Below, piece by piece: positions 3,025-18,122 of a DNA stretch of 64,000 nt. This DNA comes from Isoalcanivorax pacificus W11-5 (GTDB lineage: Bacteria > Pseudomonadota > Gammaproteobacteria > Pseudomonadales > Alcanivoracaceae). The notes under the pieces are model-generated. The model did not search any database and was not told the origin of the DNA. It worked only from the letters and a program-made list of their open reading frames with translations. The stretch covers positions 3,612,994-3,676,993 of the forward strand of contig NZ_CP004387.1 of NCBI RefSeq assembly GCF_000299335.2. Direction: 5' to 3'. How positions within the stretch are numbered: the first letter of the stretch is position 1; the number at the start of each line of letters is the position of its first letter. The position numbers were made by a program, and so were the translations under genes.

Positions 3025-3690
3025 TCAGCCTGCCTCCGCCAGCAAACCCGCCAGCATCAGTTGCAGGCTGTCCGTCAGGCTGTCGGCAAAATCCCGGCGC
3101 ATCAGGCTCAGCTCGGGCCGCTGCAACACTTTTTCCACCAGCGGCGCCGGATGGCAGACCGGCCAGAGCCCGCCCACCTGGGCCAGGAAATAGGCCATGA
3201 AATCCTGCAGCCGGACCGTGCCCACCGCCGGCAGCGCCGCCTGCAACGCCGACAGCACCGCCAGCCCGCGTTGCAGGCTCTCCTGTTTGAACGCCAGCAC
3301 CGCCTGCTCGGACAGGTTACGTTCCAGCACGTTGCCGAGCAGGCTCACCAGCTGGCACAGGCGCGGGCGCGCCACGGTCGCCGTGGCCAGCACCGCCGCC
3401 ACGGTCGCCGGCTGATTGCTGCCGGCCAGCGGCGCCAGGGCCGCCTTCACGTCCTCCACCCAGCCATCGAGATCCTGCATCAGCAGCGCCAGGTAGATCG
3501 CCTCGCGGCTCTCGAAGTAGCGATAGACATTGGACTTGGCCAGCCGCGCTTCCCGGGCAATCGCATTCAGGCTGAGCTGATCCGGTGCCTGCTGCGCCAG
3601 CAGGCGCGCGGTGGCCGCCAGGATGCTGTCCCGTCGCTGGGCGATTTCCTCAGGCTTGCGGGCCCGGATAAAACAGCCTTCACCTTTCAT
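3025..3690 (-). CDS. TetR-family transcriptional regulator
   Basis: A 221-residue regulator with an N-terminal helix-turn-helix (about residues 18-65), including the TetR-typical stretch SLNAIAREA..AKSNVYRYFESREAI. The C-terminal ligand domain is not specific enough to name an inducer. An in-frame GTG lies at 3696, but AAGAG sits 8 bases before the ATG at 3690, which I prefer. The gene is divergent from the SDR gene at 3844, and two GACC-N3-GGTC dyads lie between them. It probably represses that SDR gene and possibly itself. Confidence 0.88.
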   Translation of the reverse strand: MKGEGCFIRARKPEEIAQRRDSILAATARLLAQQAPDQLSLNAIAREARLAKSNVYRYFESREAIYLALLMQDLDGWVEDVKAALAPLAGSNQPATVAAVLATATVARPRLCQLVSLLGNVLERNLSEQAVLAFKQESLQRGLAVLSALQAALPAVGTVRLQDFMAYFLAQVGGLWPVCHPAPLVEKVLQRPELSLMRRDFADSLTDSLQLMLAGLLAEAG

Positions 3691-13287: not shown

Positions 13288-14832
13288 ATGCACGCACTGA
13301 CCATGGCCAGAAAACTCTGGGGCGCGCTGGGTATTACCTGGCTGGCAATACTGCTGCTGATGGGCTGGATGAACTGGCAGAACCGCCAGACCATCCAGCA
13401 GGAACGACAGGACACGCTGCGACATATGGTCAGCGCGGCGCAGCACCAGCTTGCTGCGCTGTCAGAACAGGTAAAGCGCGGTGACCTGTCGATCGACCAG
13501 GCCCAGGCCCGGGGCCGGGAGGCCATCGCCAGCATCCGTTTCGGTGATGGCGACTACCTGTTCGCCTTCGACCCGGCCATGCGCATCCTGGTGCACCCGG
13601 TGTTCGAGCGCGGCACGGACATGAGCGATTACCAGGATTCCGGCGGCAACATGATTTTTCATATGCTCATGGACGTGGTACGCCGGCAGGGCAACGGCTT
13701 CGTCACCTACCACACCACCCGTGCCGGCGGCGAAGAAGAATTGCCAAAGCTGACCTACATGGATGTCTATGCGCCCTGGGACTGGTACATCGGCACCGGC
13801 GTCTACCTGGACGACATCGACACCGCATTTCACGCCTCGCTGTTGCGCTCGCTGGTGATCCTGCTGGTCATTGGCGTACCGATGACTCTGCTGATGGGCT
13901 GGATCATCCGCGATACCACCCGTCGCCTCGGCGGCGACCCCGCCTACGCCGCGAGGGTAGTGCGCTACATCGCCGACGGCGACCTCACCCGCACCACGCA
14001 GCTTGCTGCAGACGACCGCGACAGCCTGCTGTTTCATATCAACCGCATGCGCGAAAGCCTGCTCGATACCATTCGCGCCATCCTGCACAGCGCCGATGAC
14101 GTGAACAGCGCCGTGCTGGAAATTCGCGGCGGCAACGACGAACTCGCCACGCGCACCGAACAGCAGGCCGCGTCGCTGGCGGAAACCGCCAGCAGCATGG
14201 AGCAGATCACCGCCACCGTGAAACAGAACGCCGACCATGCCGACCACGCCCGCCGCCTGGCCGGCGACACCGAGGACCGGGCACGTGCCGGACGCGGCGC
14301 CATGGAACAGGTGATCGAATTGATGCAGGCCATCACCCAGAGCGCCCGCCAGATGAGCAGCATCGTCGACACCATCGACGGCATCGCCTTCCAGACCAAT
14401 ATCCTGGCGCTGAATGCCTCGGTGGAAGCCGCCCGCGCCGGCGAACAGGGGCGGGGCTTCGCCGTGGTCGCCAGCGAAGTGCGCAACCTGGCCAGCCGTT
14501 CCGCAGACGCGGCCCGCGAAATCAAGGCACTGATCGAAGGTGCCCACGCACAGGTGGCGCAGGGCAGCCGGCAGGTACAGGACACCGGCGACATTATCGC
14601 CAGCATGAGCCACGACATGACGCAACTGAACACATTGATCAGCGAAATTTCCACTGCCTCGACGGAGCAGAGCCACGGCATCGGGCAGGTGAACCAGGCG
14701 GTGACACAGATGGATCAGATGACGCAGCAGAATGCATCACTGGTGCAGGAAAGCAGCCGGGCATCGGAAAAGCTGGCCACCCTGAGCAAGGTCATGCGCG
14801 AACGCGCCAGCCGCTTTACCGTGGCGGACTGA
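13288..14832 (+). CDS. Methyl-accepting chemotaxis protein with single Cache domain
   Basis: A 514-residue chemoreceptor. A transmembrane segment at residues ~8-25 is followed by a periplasmic single-Cache domain (~30-190) with DGDYLFAFDPAMRILVHP and WDWYIGTGVYLDDID. A second membrane helix (~192-215), a HAMP region and a cytoplasmic signalling hairpin come next. The hairpin tip, containing AFQTNILALNASVEAARAGE, is near identical to classic MCPs. There is no C-terminal CheR-binding pentapeptide. The ATG at 13288 follows AAGGA, so the longer frame from 13189 is unlikely. Cache domains of this type often bind small carboxylates; the ligand here is unknown. Confidence 0.92.
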   Translation: MHALTMARKLWGALGITWLAILLLMGWMNWQNRQTIQQERQDTLRHMVSAAQHQLAALSEQVKRGDLSIDQAQARGREAIASIRFGDGDYLFAFDPAMRILVHPVFERGTDMSDYQDSGGNMIFHMLMDVVRRQGNGFVTYHTTRAGGEEELPKLTYMDVYAPWDWYIGTGVYLDDIDTAFHASLLRSLVILLVIGVPMTLLMGWIIRDTTRRLGGDPAYAARVVRYIADGDLTRTTQLAADDRDSLLFHINRMRESLLDTIRAILHSADDVNSAVLEIRGGNDELATRTEQQAASLAETASSMEQITATVKQNADHADHARRLAGDTEDRARAGRGAMEQVIELMQAITQSARQMSSIVDTIDGIAFQTNILALNASVEAARAGEQGRGFAVVASEVRNLASRSADAAREIKALIEGAHAQVAQGSRQVQDTGDIIASMSHDMTQLNTLISEISTASTEQSHGIGQVNQAVTQMDQMTQQNASLVQESSRASEKLATLSKVMRERASRFTVAD

Positions 14833-14843
14833 ACAGGGCCGGC

Positions 14844-14879
14844 AAAAAAAACGCGCCACCGGCATGCCGATGGCGCGTT
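14844..14879 (-). terminator. Rho-independent terminator of slipin gene
   Basis: AACGCGCCA (14850-14858) pairs with TGGCGCGTT (14871-14879), with a GC-rich inner part. On the minus strand it is followed by seven T (A-run at 14844-14850). It directly follows the slipin stop codon. Confidence 0.8.
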
Positions 14880-14880
14880 G

Positions 14881-16032
14881 TCAGCCGGCTACGCTGCGCA
14901 GCTTGACCAGTTCGTTCATCAGACCATCCAGACCACCGTACACGGAAATCCGGTCGATCCGGCCGGTGACACGTTCCAGCGCCTCCAGCTCTTTCAGCCG
15001 CATCAGTACCGGGCTGTTCTCCATCATTTTTGCCGTGTTGTGCAGCGATCGCATCGCCTGGGTTTCTTCGCGGCGACGAATCAGGTTGGCCTCCGCCTCT
15101 TTCTGCGCCTGCACCACCTGATTGAGGATCTCCTTCATTTCACCCGGCAGGATGATGTCCTTCACGCCGACACTCAGCAGGCCGATACCGACGTCTGCCA
15201 GCGCGTCTCTGGCCGACGCCAGCAATGCGCCGTTGAGCGCATCTTTCTGCTCAAGCAACTCGTCCAGCGAGCGTGTGCCCACCGCTTCGCGCAAGGCCAG
15301 TTGCAGCACGCGATACGTGTAGGCGGCCGCGTCTTTCAGCATTGAGGCCAGCTTGCGTACATCGGTCACCTGGTAGCTGGCCGACAGGTTCAAACGCAGG
15401 GATACCCGGTCACGTGTCAGGATTTCCTGACCGCTCACTTCGGTTTCGGTCACACGCAGGTCCACCAGCGTCACATCCACTGAGCGGCCCACCTGCCAGT
15501 AACCGTAGCTGCCGGCTTCCAGCACTGCCTGAAGGCCACCATTGACCCGCAACAGGCCCACATGCCGTACCGGCACATCGACGCTGTACACCAGCGCACG
15601 GGCCTTTTGCAGCAACGGCACATTCAGGCTCTTGCACAGCGGACCAAGCAGCGCGGCCGGCAGCGCCATGTCCTGCGCAATGTCGATCAGTTCGACACGC
15701 AACTCATCGACATGCCGCCACAGTACCAGCTCGCTGGCCGGCGGCAGCAGGTCCATCAGCTTGCCGTCGCGGTAGACCAGGGCCACCTGCGTATCGCCGG
15801 TCGCATAACGTACCAGATGTTCCTGCAGTGCGGCGTGCTCGCGCATCAGGTACTTGATGTCCGCGCGCGCCATCACCAGATCACTGGTGTGGTAGCTCTC
15901 CAGCGTGACGTTGCCGCGCAGCAGGCTGACGCGATGGCGGCCCGGCAGCAACAATTTTTCATAACGGCCGCGACGCCACAGCAACACACGTTGCTGATCG
16001 GCGACATCCACCGTCATCCAGAGTTTCATCAT
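14881..16032 (-). CDS. Slipin (SPFH/band-7) family protein
   Basis: A 383-residue SPFH/band-7 protein. The SPFH core lies at about residues 180-340, with stretches such as EILTRDRVSLRLNLSASYQV, VGTRSLDELLEQKD and GVKDIILPGEMKEI, followed by a coiled-coil tail (VQAQKEAEANLIRRREE). The first ~150 residues carry a slipin-like amino extension and no obvious membrane helix. Starts at 16032 or 16029 (two Met codons) follow GGGAG; the longer frame to 16293 overlaps the RNA elements and lacks a binding site. About 320 bases upstream on the same strand is a non-decoding tRNA-like element, suggesting a joint transcript. Slipins of this kind have been linked to RNA-repair (RtcB/RtcR) loci in other bacteria, a link I recall and could not check. 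Confidence 0.85.
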   Translation of the reverse strand: MMKLWMTVDVADQQRVLLWRRGRYEKLLLPGRHRVSLLRGNVTLESYHTSDLVMARADIKYLMREHAALQEHLVRYATGDTQVALVYRDGKLMDLLPPASELVLWRHVDELRVELIDIAQDMALPAALLGPLCKSLNVPLLQKARALVYSVDVPVRHVGLLRVNGGLQAVLEAGSYGYWQVGRSVDVTLVDLRVTETEVSGQEILTRDRVSLRLNLSASYQVTDVRKLASMLKDAAAYTYRVLQLALREAVGTRSLDELLEQKDALNGALLASARDALADVGIGLLSVGVKDIILPGEMKEILNQVVQAQKEAEANLIRRREETQAMRSLHNTAKMMENSPVLMRLKELEALERVTGRIDRISVYGGLDGLMNELVKLRSVAG

Positions 16033-16350
16033 CACACTACTCCCTGTTTCATTATGGCTTTCGTCAGGTGGAACCTGCCCGCCGCACGGCGGCGGACGGT
16101 CTGGGTCACCGGGGTGAACGCCAGCTTGCCGGCTCACATGCAGCGGCCGGTGTTGAACGGGTGGTGCCAACCACGGCCGGGCCGCGCCGTTCTCCACCGG
16201 CGTACCTGTGTCACGCCAGTCACCAGCCACCGGCCGCGGCCAGCGCGGCGGACAGGCTCCGGGTTTGAGATTTTCTGCATGGGTAACCGCCATGTGGGGA
16301 GTCGAACCCCGGCCCTCCGGCCTTCCCGCTCGCTACGTGCTGTAGCAGGT
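16033..16350 (-). other. Long leader upstream of slipin gene with second T-arm-like element
   Basis: No coding signal is seen in this stretch. Reading the minus strand from 16347, there is a GCTAC/GTAGC hairpin, then GGCC-GGAG-GGCC. Next comes a T-arm-like hairpin GGGG-TTCGACT-CCCC (near 16287-16305). The arrangement resembles a second, more eroded tRNA-like module placed directly after the first. The rest, down to 16033, is GC-rich and probably the untranslated leader of the slipin transcript. I found no acceptable sigma-54 (GG-N10-GC) promoter in it. Confidence 0.4.
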
Positions 16351-16420
16351 GCTATCACGGGACTCGAACCCGTGACCCGCAGGCATGGCCTGCTGCTCTA
16401 CCCGGCTGAGCTAGATAGCC
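16348..16420 (-). ncRNA. tRNA-Met-like RNA element without a usable anticodon loop
   Basis: On the minus strand this reads as a cloverleaf close to elongator tRNA-Met. It has acceptor GGCTATC/GATAGC, D-arm GCTC..GAGC, the variable GGGTC, and T-arm ACGGG-TTCGAGT-CCCGT. The anticodon arm is abnormal: GCAGG-CCATG-CCTGC can fold as a 6-bp stem with only a CAT triloop. It is two bases shorter than normal and lacks the conserved U33. The acceptor has G1 opposite A, and the 3' end is ACCT rather than ACCA. It could be a tRNA pseudogene, but the intact helices argue for a kept tRNA mimic, as in Y-RNA-like RNAs. It lies on the slipin strand. Confidence 0.6.
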
Positions 16421-16580
16421 TGTTCGCGCTGCAATGACGACCGGTACACGGCCAGCCACGGGCCGCCGCGCCAGGCTGGTGCAGAACCAGCGCCGCTGTT
16501 CGTCATCGACAACGTCGAACCTGTTTGCGGAATAGCGCTCACGCTCTATTCCGGCATCTGTGTGCGCATGCCGCGCAAAC

Positions 16581-16617
16581 AAAAAAAGCCCGGAAGGTTT
16601 TGCCTTCCGGGCTTTTT
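16581..16617. terminator. Strong bidirectional intrinsic terminator
   Basis: GCCCGGAAGG (16588-16597) pairs with CCTTCCGGGC (16603-16612). A 7-base A-run lies on the left (16581-16587) and T5 on the right (16613-16617), so it can work on both strands. No protein gene ends here, which suggests a non-coding transcript. Confidence 0.8.
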
Positions 16618-16734
16618 CCAATGCAACCGGGAAGGCAGCGCCTTCCCGACTGAAAGACGCACGCTTAACGCTGTACCGCCACCTCGTTCATGGCGCAACG
16701 CCGCACAACGCTGTCGATGCAGCGTGGCTGGCTG

Positions 16735-16973: not shown

Positions 16974-18122
16974 ATGCTCCGCAGCAAACTGCCCGACCTG
17001 GGCATCACCATCTTTACCCGCATGACGCAACTGGCACAGGAAACCGGCGCCATCAACCTGTCACAGGGCTTTCCCGACTTCGCGCCACCGGCCGCGCTGC
17101 TGGACGCAGCGATGCGGCACCTGCGCGACGGGCAGAACCAGTACGCGCCGATGACCGGCATCGCCTCCCTGCGCGAACAGGTGGCACACAAGATTGCCCG
17201 GCGCTATGGCCGGCAGCTCGACAGCCAGCGCGAAGTCACCATCGTGCCCGGCGCCACGGAAGCCATCTTCTGTGCCATCCAGGCGGTGGTGCAGCCCGGC
17301 GACGAGGTGATCCTGCTCGACCCCAGCTACGACAGCTACGCACCCTCGGTGCACCTGGCCGGCGGCCGGTGCGTGCATGTGCCGTTGCAGCAACCGGATT
17401 TCTCGATCGACTGGCAGCGTCTGCAGGCGGCGTTCTCGCCGCGTACCCGACTGCTGATCATCAACTCGCCGCACAATCCCAGCGGCGCGCTGATCTCCCG
17501 TGCCGACCTGGACCAGCTCGCCGCCCTGCTGCGCGGCCACGACGCCTGGCTGCTCTCCGATGAGGTCTACGAACACCTGGTCTACGACGGCCAGCTGCAT
17601 GCCAGCGTGCTTGCCCATGATGCGCTGTACCAGCGCGCCTTTGTGGTCAGTTCATTCGGCAAGACCTACCACGTCACCGGCTGGAAAACCGGTTACGTGG
17701 CCGCGCCGCCAGCACTGACCGACGAACTGCGCAAGGTGCACCAGTACGTCAACTTCTGCGGTGTGACACCGCTGCAACACGCGCTGGCCGATTTCATGGC
17801 CGCGCATCCTGAGCACCTGGATGAGCTGCCACACTTCTACCAGGCCAAGCGCGACCTGTTCTGCCAGTTGCTGCAACCGTCGAAGCTGCGCTGCGTGCCG
17901 GCACCCGGCACCTACTTCCAGCTTGCGGACTACAGCGCCATCCGCGACGATCTGGACGATGTGGCGATGGCCGAATGGTTGACCCGCGAAGCCGGCGTAG
18001 CGGCCATCCCGATTTCCGTGTTCTACCGCGAACCGCCGAAGGACCTGCGCCTGGTACGCTTCTGCTTCGCCAAACAGGACCTGACCCTGCAACAGGCTGC
18101 CGAGAGGTTATGTGCGCTATGA
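16974..18122 (+). CDS. ybdL: PLP-dependent methionine/glutamine-type transaminase
   Basis: A 382-residue fold-type I aminotransferase close to E. coli YbdL and glutamine transaminase K. Motifs are INLSQGFPDF near the N-terminus, GQNQYAPMTGI, PGATEAIF, SPHNPSG, and SSFGKTYHVTGWK with the PLP-binding Lys near residue 230. The ATG at 16974 follows AGGA and matches the conserved start; the frame extends upstream to 16560 without support. The next gene overlaps by 4 bases and encodes an omega-amidase. The pair fits the known route in which glutamine donates its amino group to a keto acid such as 4-methylthio-2-oxobutyrate. The resulting 2-oxoglutaramate is then hydrolysed. Confidence 0.88.
   Translation: MLRSKLPDLGITIFTRMTQLAQETGAINLSQGFPDFAPPAALLDAAMRHLRDGQNQYAPMTGIASLREQVAHKIARRYGRQLDSQREVTIVPGATEAIFCAIQAVVQPGDEVILLDPSYDSYAPSVHLAGGRCVHVPLQQPDFSIDWQRLQAAFSPRTRLLIINSPHNPSGALISRADLDQLAALLRGHDAWLLSDEVYEHLVYDGQLHASVLAHDALYQRAFVVSSFGKTYHVTGWKTGYVAAPPALTDELRKVHQYVNFCGVTPLQHALADFMAAHPEHLDELPHFYQAKRDLFCQLLQPSKLRCVPAPGTYFQLADYSAIRDDLDDVAMAEWLTREAGVAAIPISVFYREPPKDLRLVRFCFAKQDLTLQQAAERLCAL

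What the first reader, a model, noticed from the sequence alone, without database searches (positions are those of the whole stretch)
14881..16420. Slipin gene behind a non-decoding tRNA-Met-like RNA and a second T-arm-like module
Seen: a cloverleaf close to elongator tRNA-Met on the slipin strand. Its anticodon arm is two bases short (GCAGGC-CAT-GCCTGC closes to a triloop), U33 is lost, one acceptor pair is missing and the end is CCT. Directly behind it is another GGGG-TTCGACT-CCCC T-arm. All other helices are intact, which is unusual for a decayed gene. Known: bacterial Y RNAs (YrlA) mimic tRNA, and RNA-repair loci contain tRNA-like RNAs. I also recall slipin genes in such loci. Inference: a slipin/tRNA-mimic unit linked to RNA damage, without rtcB nearby.
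Basis: partly seen in the sequence, partly recalled or inferred. Interest (0 to 1): 0.82.

Follow-up and report, generated by a model that had tools for sequence, protein, structure and literature searches.

The report
Large tRNA-mimic RNA preceding slipin gene
The odd 'tRNA' in front of this gene is one piece of a larger, evolutionarily conserved non-coding RNA that travels with one kind of slipin protein, usually in bacteria that carry RNA-repair genes, and here it has been kept although the known repair enzymes looked for are missing.

Summary
The tRNA-like element (window 16350-16420, minus strand) is one domain of a predicted structured RNA of about 440 nt (about 16070-16510) that ends just before the slipin start (ATG 16032): a 5' three-way junction, the cloverleaf, a hairpin plus second T-arm ('mini-elbow'), and a 3' domain closed by an 18-bp helix. 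Covariation is strong for cloverleaf and mini-elbow and the 5' domain, modest for the closing helix. The RNA follows this slipin family: 48 of 50 assessable named-genome loci have the tRNA-like upstream, as do 19 of 22 slipin genes in a draw of 369 genomes; all 7 strong RNA hits in that draw adjoin slipin. It is not a normal decoding tRNA. Most genomes with these loci carry RtcB (43 of 49); the window genome lacks RtcB, RtcR, RtcA and PF09414 ligases. I recall that an SPFH/tRNA-like pairing in RNA-repair loci was published in 2016, so the pairing is known; I found no description of the multidomain RNA or the ligase-free unit. Mechanism is inferred: tRNA-mimic RNP scaffold or decoy.

The parts
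16433..16507 (-). 5' domain ('module 0'): three-way junction; closing stem 16498-16507 with 16433-16442, hairpin 16475-16491, hairpin 16446-16471
   Evidence: 24 pairs tested on 31 chosen loci: 83.8% of 741 cells paired, 20 of 24 pairs with changes on both sides (13/500 shuffles reach that count), 0/500 shuffles reach the pairing or covariation score; model R2 gives 89.4 bits here (window is in its training set) and nothing in 60 control loci
16350..16420 (-). tRNA-like cloverleaf (module 1), anticodon arm closed to a triloop, no CCA
   Evidence: ARAGORN and Rfam; covariation on 33 chosen loci
16379..16393 (-). degenerate anticodon arm GCAGGC-CAT-GCCTGC
   Evidence: sequence; the arm pairs in 98.8% of cells while the loop varies in length and sequence across loci
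16332..16346 (-). linker hairpin P1 (GCTAC-AGCAC-GTAGC)
   Evidence: sequence and fold; absent from the shorter class of loci; covariation not counted
16311..16322 (-). P2 hairpin (GGCC-GGAG-GGCC)
   Evidence: 93.9% of cells paired over 33 loci, 3 of 4 pairs with changes on both sides
16296..16310 (-). second T-arm (GGGG-TTCGACT-CCCC); with P2 and the preceding GG it forms the 'mini-elbow' (module 2)
   Evidence: found in 46 of 54 loci; 100% of cells paired in 33 loci chosen to have it
16278..16294 (-). P4 hairpin (CATGG...CCATG)
   Evidence: sequence and alignment; covariation not counted
16243..16260 (-). 5' strand of the long-range helix closing the 3' domain
   Evidence: 18-bp helix, 0/200 shuffles reach it; a corresponding helix is modestly supported in other loci
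16070..16087 (-). 3' strand of the long-range helix; end of the structured RNA
   Evidence: as above
16040..16046 (-). probable ribosome-binding site (CAGGGAG)
   Evidence: sequence
14881..16032 (-). slipin gene (383 aa): three tandem beta modules, SPFH domain, long helix, no N-terminal membrane anchor
   Evidence: Band_7 E 2.3e-29; model with mean pLDDT 85.9; highest 19-residue hydropathy mean 1.68, at residue 276 inside the SPFH fold
14850..14879 (-). probable intrinsic terminator ending the RNA-slipin unit
   Evidence: 2 terminator-like sites found, 1.5 expected by chance; this one is just past the stop codon
16581..16617 (.). inverted repeat with A/T runs upstream of the RNA, probably a two-way terminator
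   Evidence: sequence; not among the hits

Best explanation
The element is the tRNA-mimic domain of a large structured non-coding RNA that belongs with the slipin encoded right behind it. The pair is at home in bacteria with Rtc-type RNA repair, often inside rtc loci; in this genome and a sister species it has been kept without a known ligase. Shown by computation: the RNA's anatomy by covariation, its tight linkage to this slipin family, features unfit for decoding, and the absence of RtcB, RtcA, RtcR and PF09414 ligases. Inferred: RNA and slipin are one transcript; the slipin, which lacks an N-terminal membrane anchor, forms a ring or cage; and the RNA is its bound scaffold, offering tRNA elbows to tRNA-handling or tRNA-cutting enzymes, so that tRNA fragments or nucleases are captured. 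The anticodon loop is free to vary because nothing decodes it.
For: Cloverleaf plus mini-elbow: 95.8% of 955 cells paired in 33 loci, 19 of 29 pairs with changes on both sides, 0/500 shuffles reach the pairing or covariation score. 5' domain. Specificity: among 143 relatives only four RNA hits reach 109 bits, all beside this slipin; the next, a tRNA, has 91.8. In 369 genomes of the class, all 7 hits with E<=1e-26 lie beside slipin. In the reverse test 19 of 22 slipins have the tRNA-like upstream, and the 5'-domain model, built without these loci, matches 17 of the 21 given (16 at E<1e-4, L147 at 0.027); two of the four misses (L148, L150) lack the upstream sequence. 0 of 60 control loci match, 22 of them ordinary band-7 loci. 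Between window and sister the cloverleaf (72/73) and linker plus mini-elbow (51/53) are more conserved than the surroundings (0.894-0.927), and slipin changes sit mostly at third codon positions: 15, 7, 62. Non-decoding: 27 anticodon strings in 55 elements, 14 of 55 with abnormal arm length, CCA in 5 of 55. RtcB in 43 of 49 genomes with these slipin loci.
Against: No transcript, RNA-protein binding or phenotype was tested. 33 of 55 elements keep a canonical-length arm with T at 33, so non-decoding rests on the family pattern and on the window copy. Between window and sister the stretch holding the 5' domain (139/150) and the last 200 nt before slipin (185/200, 14 gaps) are no better conserved than the surroundings. 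The closing-helix evidence is modest outside the window. In the window genome no ligase is known for a repair role. L144 keeps the 5' domain and a module-2-like T-arm without a cloverleaf. L092, L110 and L154 have the slipin without a clear tRNA-like. In L148 the element lies 1.38 kb upstream.
Confidence: 0.5

Rival explanations
1. Decoy or sensor: the tRNA-like is bait for anticodon nucleases. Its changing loop tracks, or escapes, different nucleases, and its cleavage or occupancy reports attack. Slipin is the effector or the store of cut RNA.
For: The three anticodon columns have the highest mean entropy of the regions measured (1.70 bits; D stem 0.00, T loop 0.41; but acceptor strands reach 1.41 and 1.52). 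Close relatives differ at the anticodon (L087 gat, L088 gtt; L081 tat, L109 cat). Some arms close to tri- or tetraloops. Decoding-type tRNA arrays lie in some of the same loci. Hughes et al. 2020 propose a competitive-inhibitor role for YrlA (PMC7790460, passages).
Against: High loop variability also follows from plain loss of constraint; no test of diversifying selection was made. It does not explain the conserved 5' and 3' domains.
Confidence: 0.25
2. Cis-acting leader: the structure is the 5' UTR of slipin and controls its expression by sensing tRNA-handling enzymes or tRNA damage.
For: In the window the RNA ends about 40 nt before the slipin start, and the element is on the slipin strand in every locus where it was found within 1.2 kb.
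Against: No terminator was called between RNA and gene on that strand and no RBS-hiding switch was seen; these were not searched for further. The cloverleaf's distance to slipin varies from about 190 to 660 nt, and to about 900 and 1380 nt in L153 and L148 (L038 has 1027 to a partial slipin match). The size and the tandem tRNA-like modules exceed what a leader needs.
Confidence: 0.17
3. Decayed or horizontally acquired tRNA gene that merely sits beside slipin.
For: Degenerate anticodon arm and missing CCA in the window copy (control).
Against: Covariation, family-wide linkage to slipin and between-species conservation.
Confidence: 0.02

Closest known systems
SPFH/Band-7 plus tRNA-like RNA of RNA-repair loci (Burroughs and Aravind 2016, NAR; abstract recalled, paper not held)
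   Same: A Band-7 gene with a cognate tRNA-like RNA in RNA-repair systems, as I recall the abstract
   Different: Here the RNA is about 440 nt with a 5' three-way junction, mini-elbow and closed 3' domain, and the ligase is missing from the whole genome; whether that paper saw the extra domains I cannot tell
Bacterial Y RNA YrlA with Rsr (rsr-yrlBA-rtcBA operons; PMC7790460, passages)
   Same: tRNA-mimic RNA encoded with RNA-repair genes
   Different: No Rfam YrlA match in the window; the adjacent protein is a slipin, not a Ro60-like protein
Anabaena TrcR regulon: rtcB, slipin alr0740 and a reserve tRNA array (PMC10272220, passages)
   Same: rtcB and slipin alr0740 both rise when the repressor is deleted (77- and 42-fold), and the same repressor holds a tRNA array silent until antibiotics hit translation
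   Different: The genes are dispersed; no tRNA-mimic RNA is mentioned in the passages seen
Vault (major vault protein with vault RNA; PMC13347060, passages)
   Same: SPFH-type shoulder with N-terminal beta repeats and a long helix; Foldseek E 2.3e-11 over 425 columns
   Different: Stomatin matches better (7.2e-15); the isolated N-terminal modules match neither MVP nor stomatin significantly (E 0.12 each)
tmRNA
   Same: tRNA-like domain inside a larger RNA
   Different: No tmRNA call by ARAGORN; Rfam 12.8 bits against 47, T-arm only

Membership tests
Decoding tRNA gene | 7-nt anticodon loop with U33, full acceptor stem, CCA (encoded in this genome) | tested here: not met
   control 30 of 30 tRNAs examined
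SPFH/tRNA-like RNA-repair locus (2016, recalled) | Band-7/SPFH gene next to a tRNA-like RNA | tested here: met
SPFH/tRNA-like RNA-repair locus (2016, recalled) | RNA ligase and RNA-end enzymes in the locus | tested here: not met
   no RtcB, RtcA or PF09414 ligase in the genome; RtcB in 43 of 49 genomes with related loci
RtcR/sigma-54 controlled rtc operon | RtcR gene and -24/-12 promoter | tested here: not met
   no RtcR in the genome; sigma-54-like site (9 of 12, GG and GC fixed; consensus recalled) within 300 nt upstream in 1 of 55 elements, not the window, 2.4 expected (the scan had an indexing error). RtcR does lie next to the RNA in L082 and L085
Y RNA (YrlA) | match to the Rfam YrlA model | tested here: not met
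   best in the seven relatives scanned L037 27.3 bits, cut-off 69
Y RNA (YrlA) | Ro60/TROVE partner gene | not tested
   no TROVE search was run on the genome
tmRNA | tmRNA model match and tag frame | tested here: not met
Slipin/stomatin | SPFH (Band_7) domain | tested here: met
   E 2.3e-29; Foldseek stomatin 7.2e-15
Slipin/stomatin | N-terminal membrane hairpin (recalled feature) | tested here: not met
   no hydrophobic segment in the N-terminal part; the maximum 19-residue mean, 1.68, is at residue 276 in the SPFH fold; two extra beta modules precede the SPFH1-like one
Vault (MVP) | SPFH shoulder with N-terminal beta repeats | tested here: inconclusive
   long Foldseek alignments; MVP_shoulder in 3 of 42 members, best E 0.023, not the window protein; N-terminal modules alone E 0.12; HMMs find no MVP
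Vault (MVP) | assembles a cage associated with RNA | not testable with these tools
   needs biochemistry

The most novel reading that the evidence does not exclude
A bacterial vault-like ribonucleoprotein: a soluble SPFH protein with three tandem beta modules builds a cage whose RNA is a large tRNA-mimicking scaffold. It triages or stores damaged tRNAs, with or without an attached ligase, and the mimic's anticodon loop diversifies under attack by tRNA-cutting toxins.
Probability: 0.17. Interest if true: 0.93.

Novelty: new variant of a known kind. Interest (0 to 1): 0.71.

Why it matters
It turns an apparent pseudo-tRNA into part of a large RNA family that Rfam 15 recognises only as tRNA at its cut-offs (window and seven relatives scanned), tied to one protein family found mostly in Gammaproteobacteria. 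It gives the slipins of RNA-repair loci a concrete RNA partner to test. The version without a known ligase in a complete genome separates the slipin/RNA function from RtcB ligation. It also warns annotators: ARAGORN calls these elements tRNAs for 13 different amino acids, or of unknown kind, in 55 elements, which inflates tRNA counts.

Tried and rejected
Decayed tRNA: rejected by covariation and linkage. Reserve decoding tRNA: of 41 other tRNAs in 16 of the loci, 36 end in CCA and 40 have T at 33; of 55 elements 5 have CCA. NiCo riboswitch (28.6 bits, cut-off 37) and RT-19 matches in the window: below cut-off, taken as chance. Sigma-54 promoter: no enrichment. My first scan tested the wrong position for the GC and is withdrawn. 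Sigma-70 promoter scan of 14800-16700: none. A gapped long-range pairing search was too permissive (14 of 46 loci unmatched by shuffles, and mixed pairings); the ungapped one is significant at 10/200 in only 6 of 46 loci, the window included. My first RtcB count (33 of 59 loci) used four query ORFs, two of which proved not to be RtcB (one RtcR, one amidohydrolase-like); it is replaced (32 of 59; 30 of these at 50% identity or more over at least 150 aa). Empty site in the genus: not testable, because the flanking aminotransferase too occurs only in the two genomes that have the unit, of 7. Defence library: no match. N-terminal modules against PDB by HMM: nothing relevant. YrlA and tmRNA membership: not met.

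Literature: nine searches were answered. None listed a paper on a slipin-associated tRNA-like RNA; 'slipin' with 'tRNA-like' gave 0 papers. Papers were seen as listings, or as passages only: PMC7790460, PMC9650030, PMC13086221, PMC7652931, PMC10272220, PMC9938897, PMC6514570, PMC10153343, PMC13347060. The library lacks most subscription papers.

Full report
What was checked. The window lies in a 4.17-Mb single-contig genome; its nearest named relative with the unit is Alcanivorax sp. S71-1-4 (L061, 95% slipin identity). The tRNA-like element is real and as described: ARAGORN calls tRNA-Met at 16348-16420 minus, Rfam gives 43.3 bits, the weakest of 46 tRNA matches in the genome. The anticodon arm is two bases short and closes to a triloop, U33 and CCA are missing, and the first acceptor pair is lost. 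Thirty of thirty other tRNAs examined in this genome (of 45) have CCA, T at 33 and a normal anticodon.

Is it conserved? A protein search of 143 relatives found eight genomes with this slipin (E<1e-80; all other best matches are weaker than 1e-19). All eight have a tRNA-like on the same strand upstream. A scan of named genomes gave 52 slipin loci. Two, L106 and L108, have too little upstream sequence. Of the other 50, 48 have an ARAGORN tRNA-like within 1.2 kb upstream, on the slipin strand; L092 and L110 do not (L110 has weak remnants). Some loci repeat between sets: L061 is the G004 locus, and L035 and L090 are one locus. The 'anticodon' runs through 27 strings in 55 elements (for L076 I set the element by hand); 10 are not three bases long; 14 of 55 have an abnormal D-arm-to-T-arm length; of the 41 with canonical length 33 have T at 33; CCA stands at 74-76 in 5 of 55.

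It is more than a tRNA. Behind the cloverleaf comes, in 46 of 54 loci examined, a second T-arm, preceded by a GG-containing stretch and a short, often GNRA-type hairpin. Aligned over 33 loci that I chose from those 46, the cloverleaf and this mini-elbow have 95.8% of 955 cells paired and 19 of 29 pairs with changes on both sides. No shuffle of 500 reaches the pairing percentage or covariation score (11 of 500 reach the count of such pairs); sliding the partners drops pairing to 34-47%. In front of the cloverleaf lies a conserved domain (AGCGG...GGTTCTG...TGGCRCA...TGTACC) that folds as a three-way junction. I aligned 31 loci, leaving out those with inserted or divergent upstream sequence and some near-duplicates: 83.8% of 741 cells pair, 20 of 24 pairs change on both sides (13 of 500 shuffles reach that count), and 0/500 reach the pairing or covariation score; the outermost pairs are weak. 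The model made from it, R2, then matches 15 of 28 other loci of this set (L038 and L093 only at 0.044 and 0.0013). Behind the mini-elbow, GAGGCCCA pairs at long range with TGGGCCTC just before slipin in a group of loci. Over all 18 aligned rows 133 of 161 cells pair (permutations reach this in 2 of 1000); without the window and L061, which are out of register there, 125 of 143 (22 of 1000; two-sided changes 1 of 1000). That is modest. In the window the helix is 18 bp, and none of 200 shuffles reaches it. The RNA thus spans about 16070-16510, and the slipin RBS and ATG (16032) follow.

Is the RNA tied to slipin? Covariance model R1 (cloverleaf plus mini-elbow) was run on the same 143 relatives: four hits of 109-128 bits, all beside this slipin; the next have at most 91.8 bits, and the 8 of these that were fetched have no such slipin. 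The other four slipin genomes of that set have elements that score only 46-77 bits. In 369 genomes drawn from the class, seven hits have E<=1e-26, window included, and all seven lie beside slipin. The reverse test on the same 369 genomes gave 22 slipins. Nineteen have the tRNA-like upstream, in L148 at 1.38 kb; L144 and L154 do not, and L156 is a partial, more distant slipin. R2, built without these loci (one, L139, has the same slipin as training locus L096), was given 21 of the 22 (L137, the window copy, left out). It matches 17 (16 at E<1e-4, L147 at 0.027); misses are L148 and L150, whose upstream sequence is not in the locus, L154 and L156. R2 matches none of 60 control loci: 30 tRNA loci of this genome, 22 ordinary band-7 loci, 8 tRNA loci of relatives. 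L144 keeps the 5' domain and a module-2-like T-arm without a cloverleaf. L141, L142, L147, L149 and L153 have two or three tandem tRNA-likes.

Context. Of 49 genomes that hold the named slipin loci (3 of 52 left out), 43 have RtcB; those without are the sister L061 and five uncultured-bacterium assemblies, L071, L072, L106, L109 and L112. In 32 of 59 loci RtcB lies inside the fetched flank, 30 of them at 50% identity or more over at least 150 aa. L063 has rtcR, rtcB, rtcA, RNA, slipin; in L082 and L085 rtcR points away from the RNA with nothing annotated between. Other loci have RlaP, a CCA/polyA-polymerase-like gene, HNH or PcfJ-like genes. Sixteen loci were read for extra tRNAs: 41 were found, 36 ending in CCA and 40 with T at 33. 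The window genome and its sister have no RtcB, RtcA or PF09414 ligase, nor have four other genomes of the genus RtcB; the window genome has no RtcR. Between the two species the cloverleaf (72 of 73) and the linker plus mini-elbow (51 of 53) are kept better than the surroundings (0.894-0.927). The stretch with the 5' domain (139 of 150) and the last part before slipin (185 of 200, 14 gaps) are not. Slipin differences are 15, 7 and 62 at codon positions 1, 2 and 3. This suggests purifying selection on the orphan unit.

The protein. The slipin has an SPFH domain and no N-terminal hydrophobic segment. Its model (mean pLDDT 85.9) shows three tandem beta modules, the third leading into the SPFH core; profile comparison says they are repeats of one another (98% probability in all three pairs). 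Foldseek finds stomatin best (7.2e-15), then HflK and prohibitin, and major vault protein from 2.3e-11 with alignments of 425-480 columns. The isolated N-terminal half gives no significant match to MVP or to stomatin (E 0.12 each), and Pfam MVP_shoulder appears in only 3 of 42 members, at best 0.023. The vault likeness is therefore an analogy, not membership.

How it most likely works. Shown by computation: a conserved multidomain RNA with one to three tRNA mimics, linked to one slipin. Inferred: slipin forms a soluble ring or cage and the RNA is its scaffold or guide, using tRNA elbows to hold tRNA-handling or tRNA-cutting enzymes or their fragments. The nearest support from the literature: YrlA's tRNA-like domain is proposed to compete for a nuclease (PMC7790460, passages); a Pseudomonas SPFH gene lies in the rtc locus (PMC13086221, one passage); and in Anabaena rtcB and a slipin rise together when a repressor of a reserve tRNA array is deleted (PMC10272220, passages; PMC9938897, one passage, reports these genes shifting together). 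A decoy role and a cis-leader role remain open.

Known or new. I recall from its abstract that Burroughs and Aravind (2016) reported SPFH/Band-7 modules with a novel tRNA-like RNA in RNA-repair systems; the paper is not held. The pairing is thus known. Not found in nine literature searches or in the Rfam 15 scans: the 5' domain, mini-elbow and 3' domain, the tandem mimics, and a genome with the unit but no ligase. I file it as a new variant of a known kind.

Noticed in passing
L062 1684-2511, L066 2067-2796, L075 76-2301, L078/L081/L109 3263-3444, L086-L091 3142-3307, L151 484-719 and 2700-3861: Arrays of decoding-type tRNA genes, most with CCA and T at 33 (L151 only by ARAGORN), flank the tRNA-mimic RNA in many slipin loci; they look like reserve tRNAs and recall the Anabaena trn array.
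   Followed up: partly
L141 1087-1301, L142 1131-1276, L147 1085-1229, L149 3004-3146, L153 3472-3693: Two or three abutting tRNA-like modules in place of one, with unrelated anticodons.
   Followed up: partly
L144 2922-3182 (minus): 5' domain and module-2-like T-arm present, cloverleaf absent: perhaps a natural deletion of the tRNA mimic.
   Followed up: partly
L136 3016-3088 (same region as L131 1560-1632): The tRNA-mimic carries a TTA 'anticodon' and is called tRNA-Stop by ARAGORN.
   Followed up: no
L082 1727-3424 and L085 1740-3341 (minus): An rtcR gene lies divergently right next to the RNA, so RtcR may control the RNA-slipin transcript there; no clear sigma-54 site was seen.
   Followed up: partly
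L110 (Chryseobacterium vrystaatense) 3428-3592: A distant slipin (36% identity) in a Chryseobacterium has degenerate tRNA-like remnants upstream (R1 25.8-28.7 bits).
   Followed up: no
window 16974-18122: The aminotransferase gene next to the RNA occurs in only the same 2 of 7 genus genomes that carry slipin, so a larger shared segment may have been gained or lost together.
   Followed up: no
window 14884-16032 (minus): Slipin with three tandem SPFH1-like beta modules and no N-terminal membrane anchor, an unusual layout for the family.
   Followed up: partly
window 16370-16437 (minus): Sub-threshold NiCo riboswitch match (28.6 bits, cut-off 37) overlapping the tRNA-like; probably chance.
   Followed up: no
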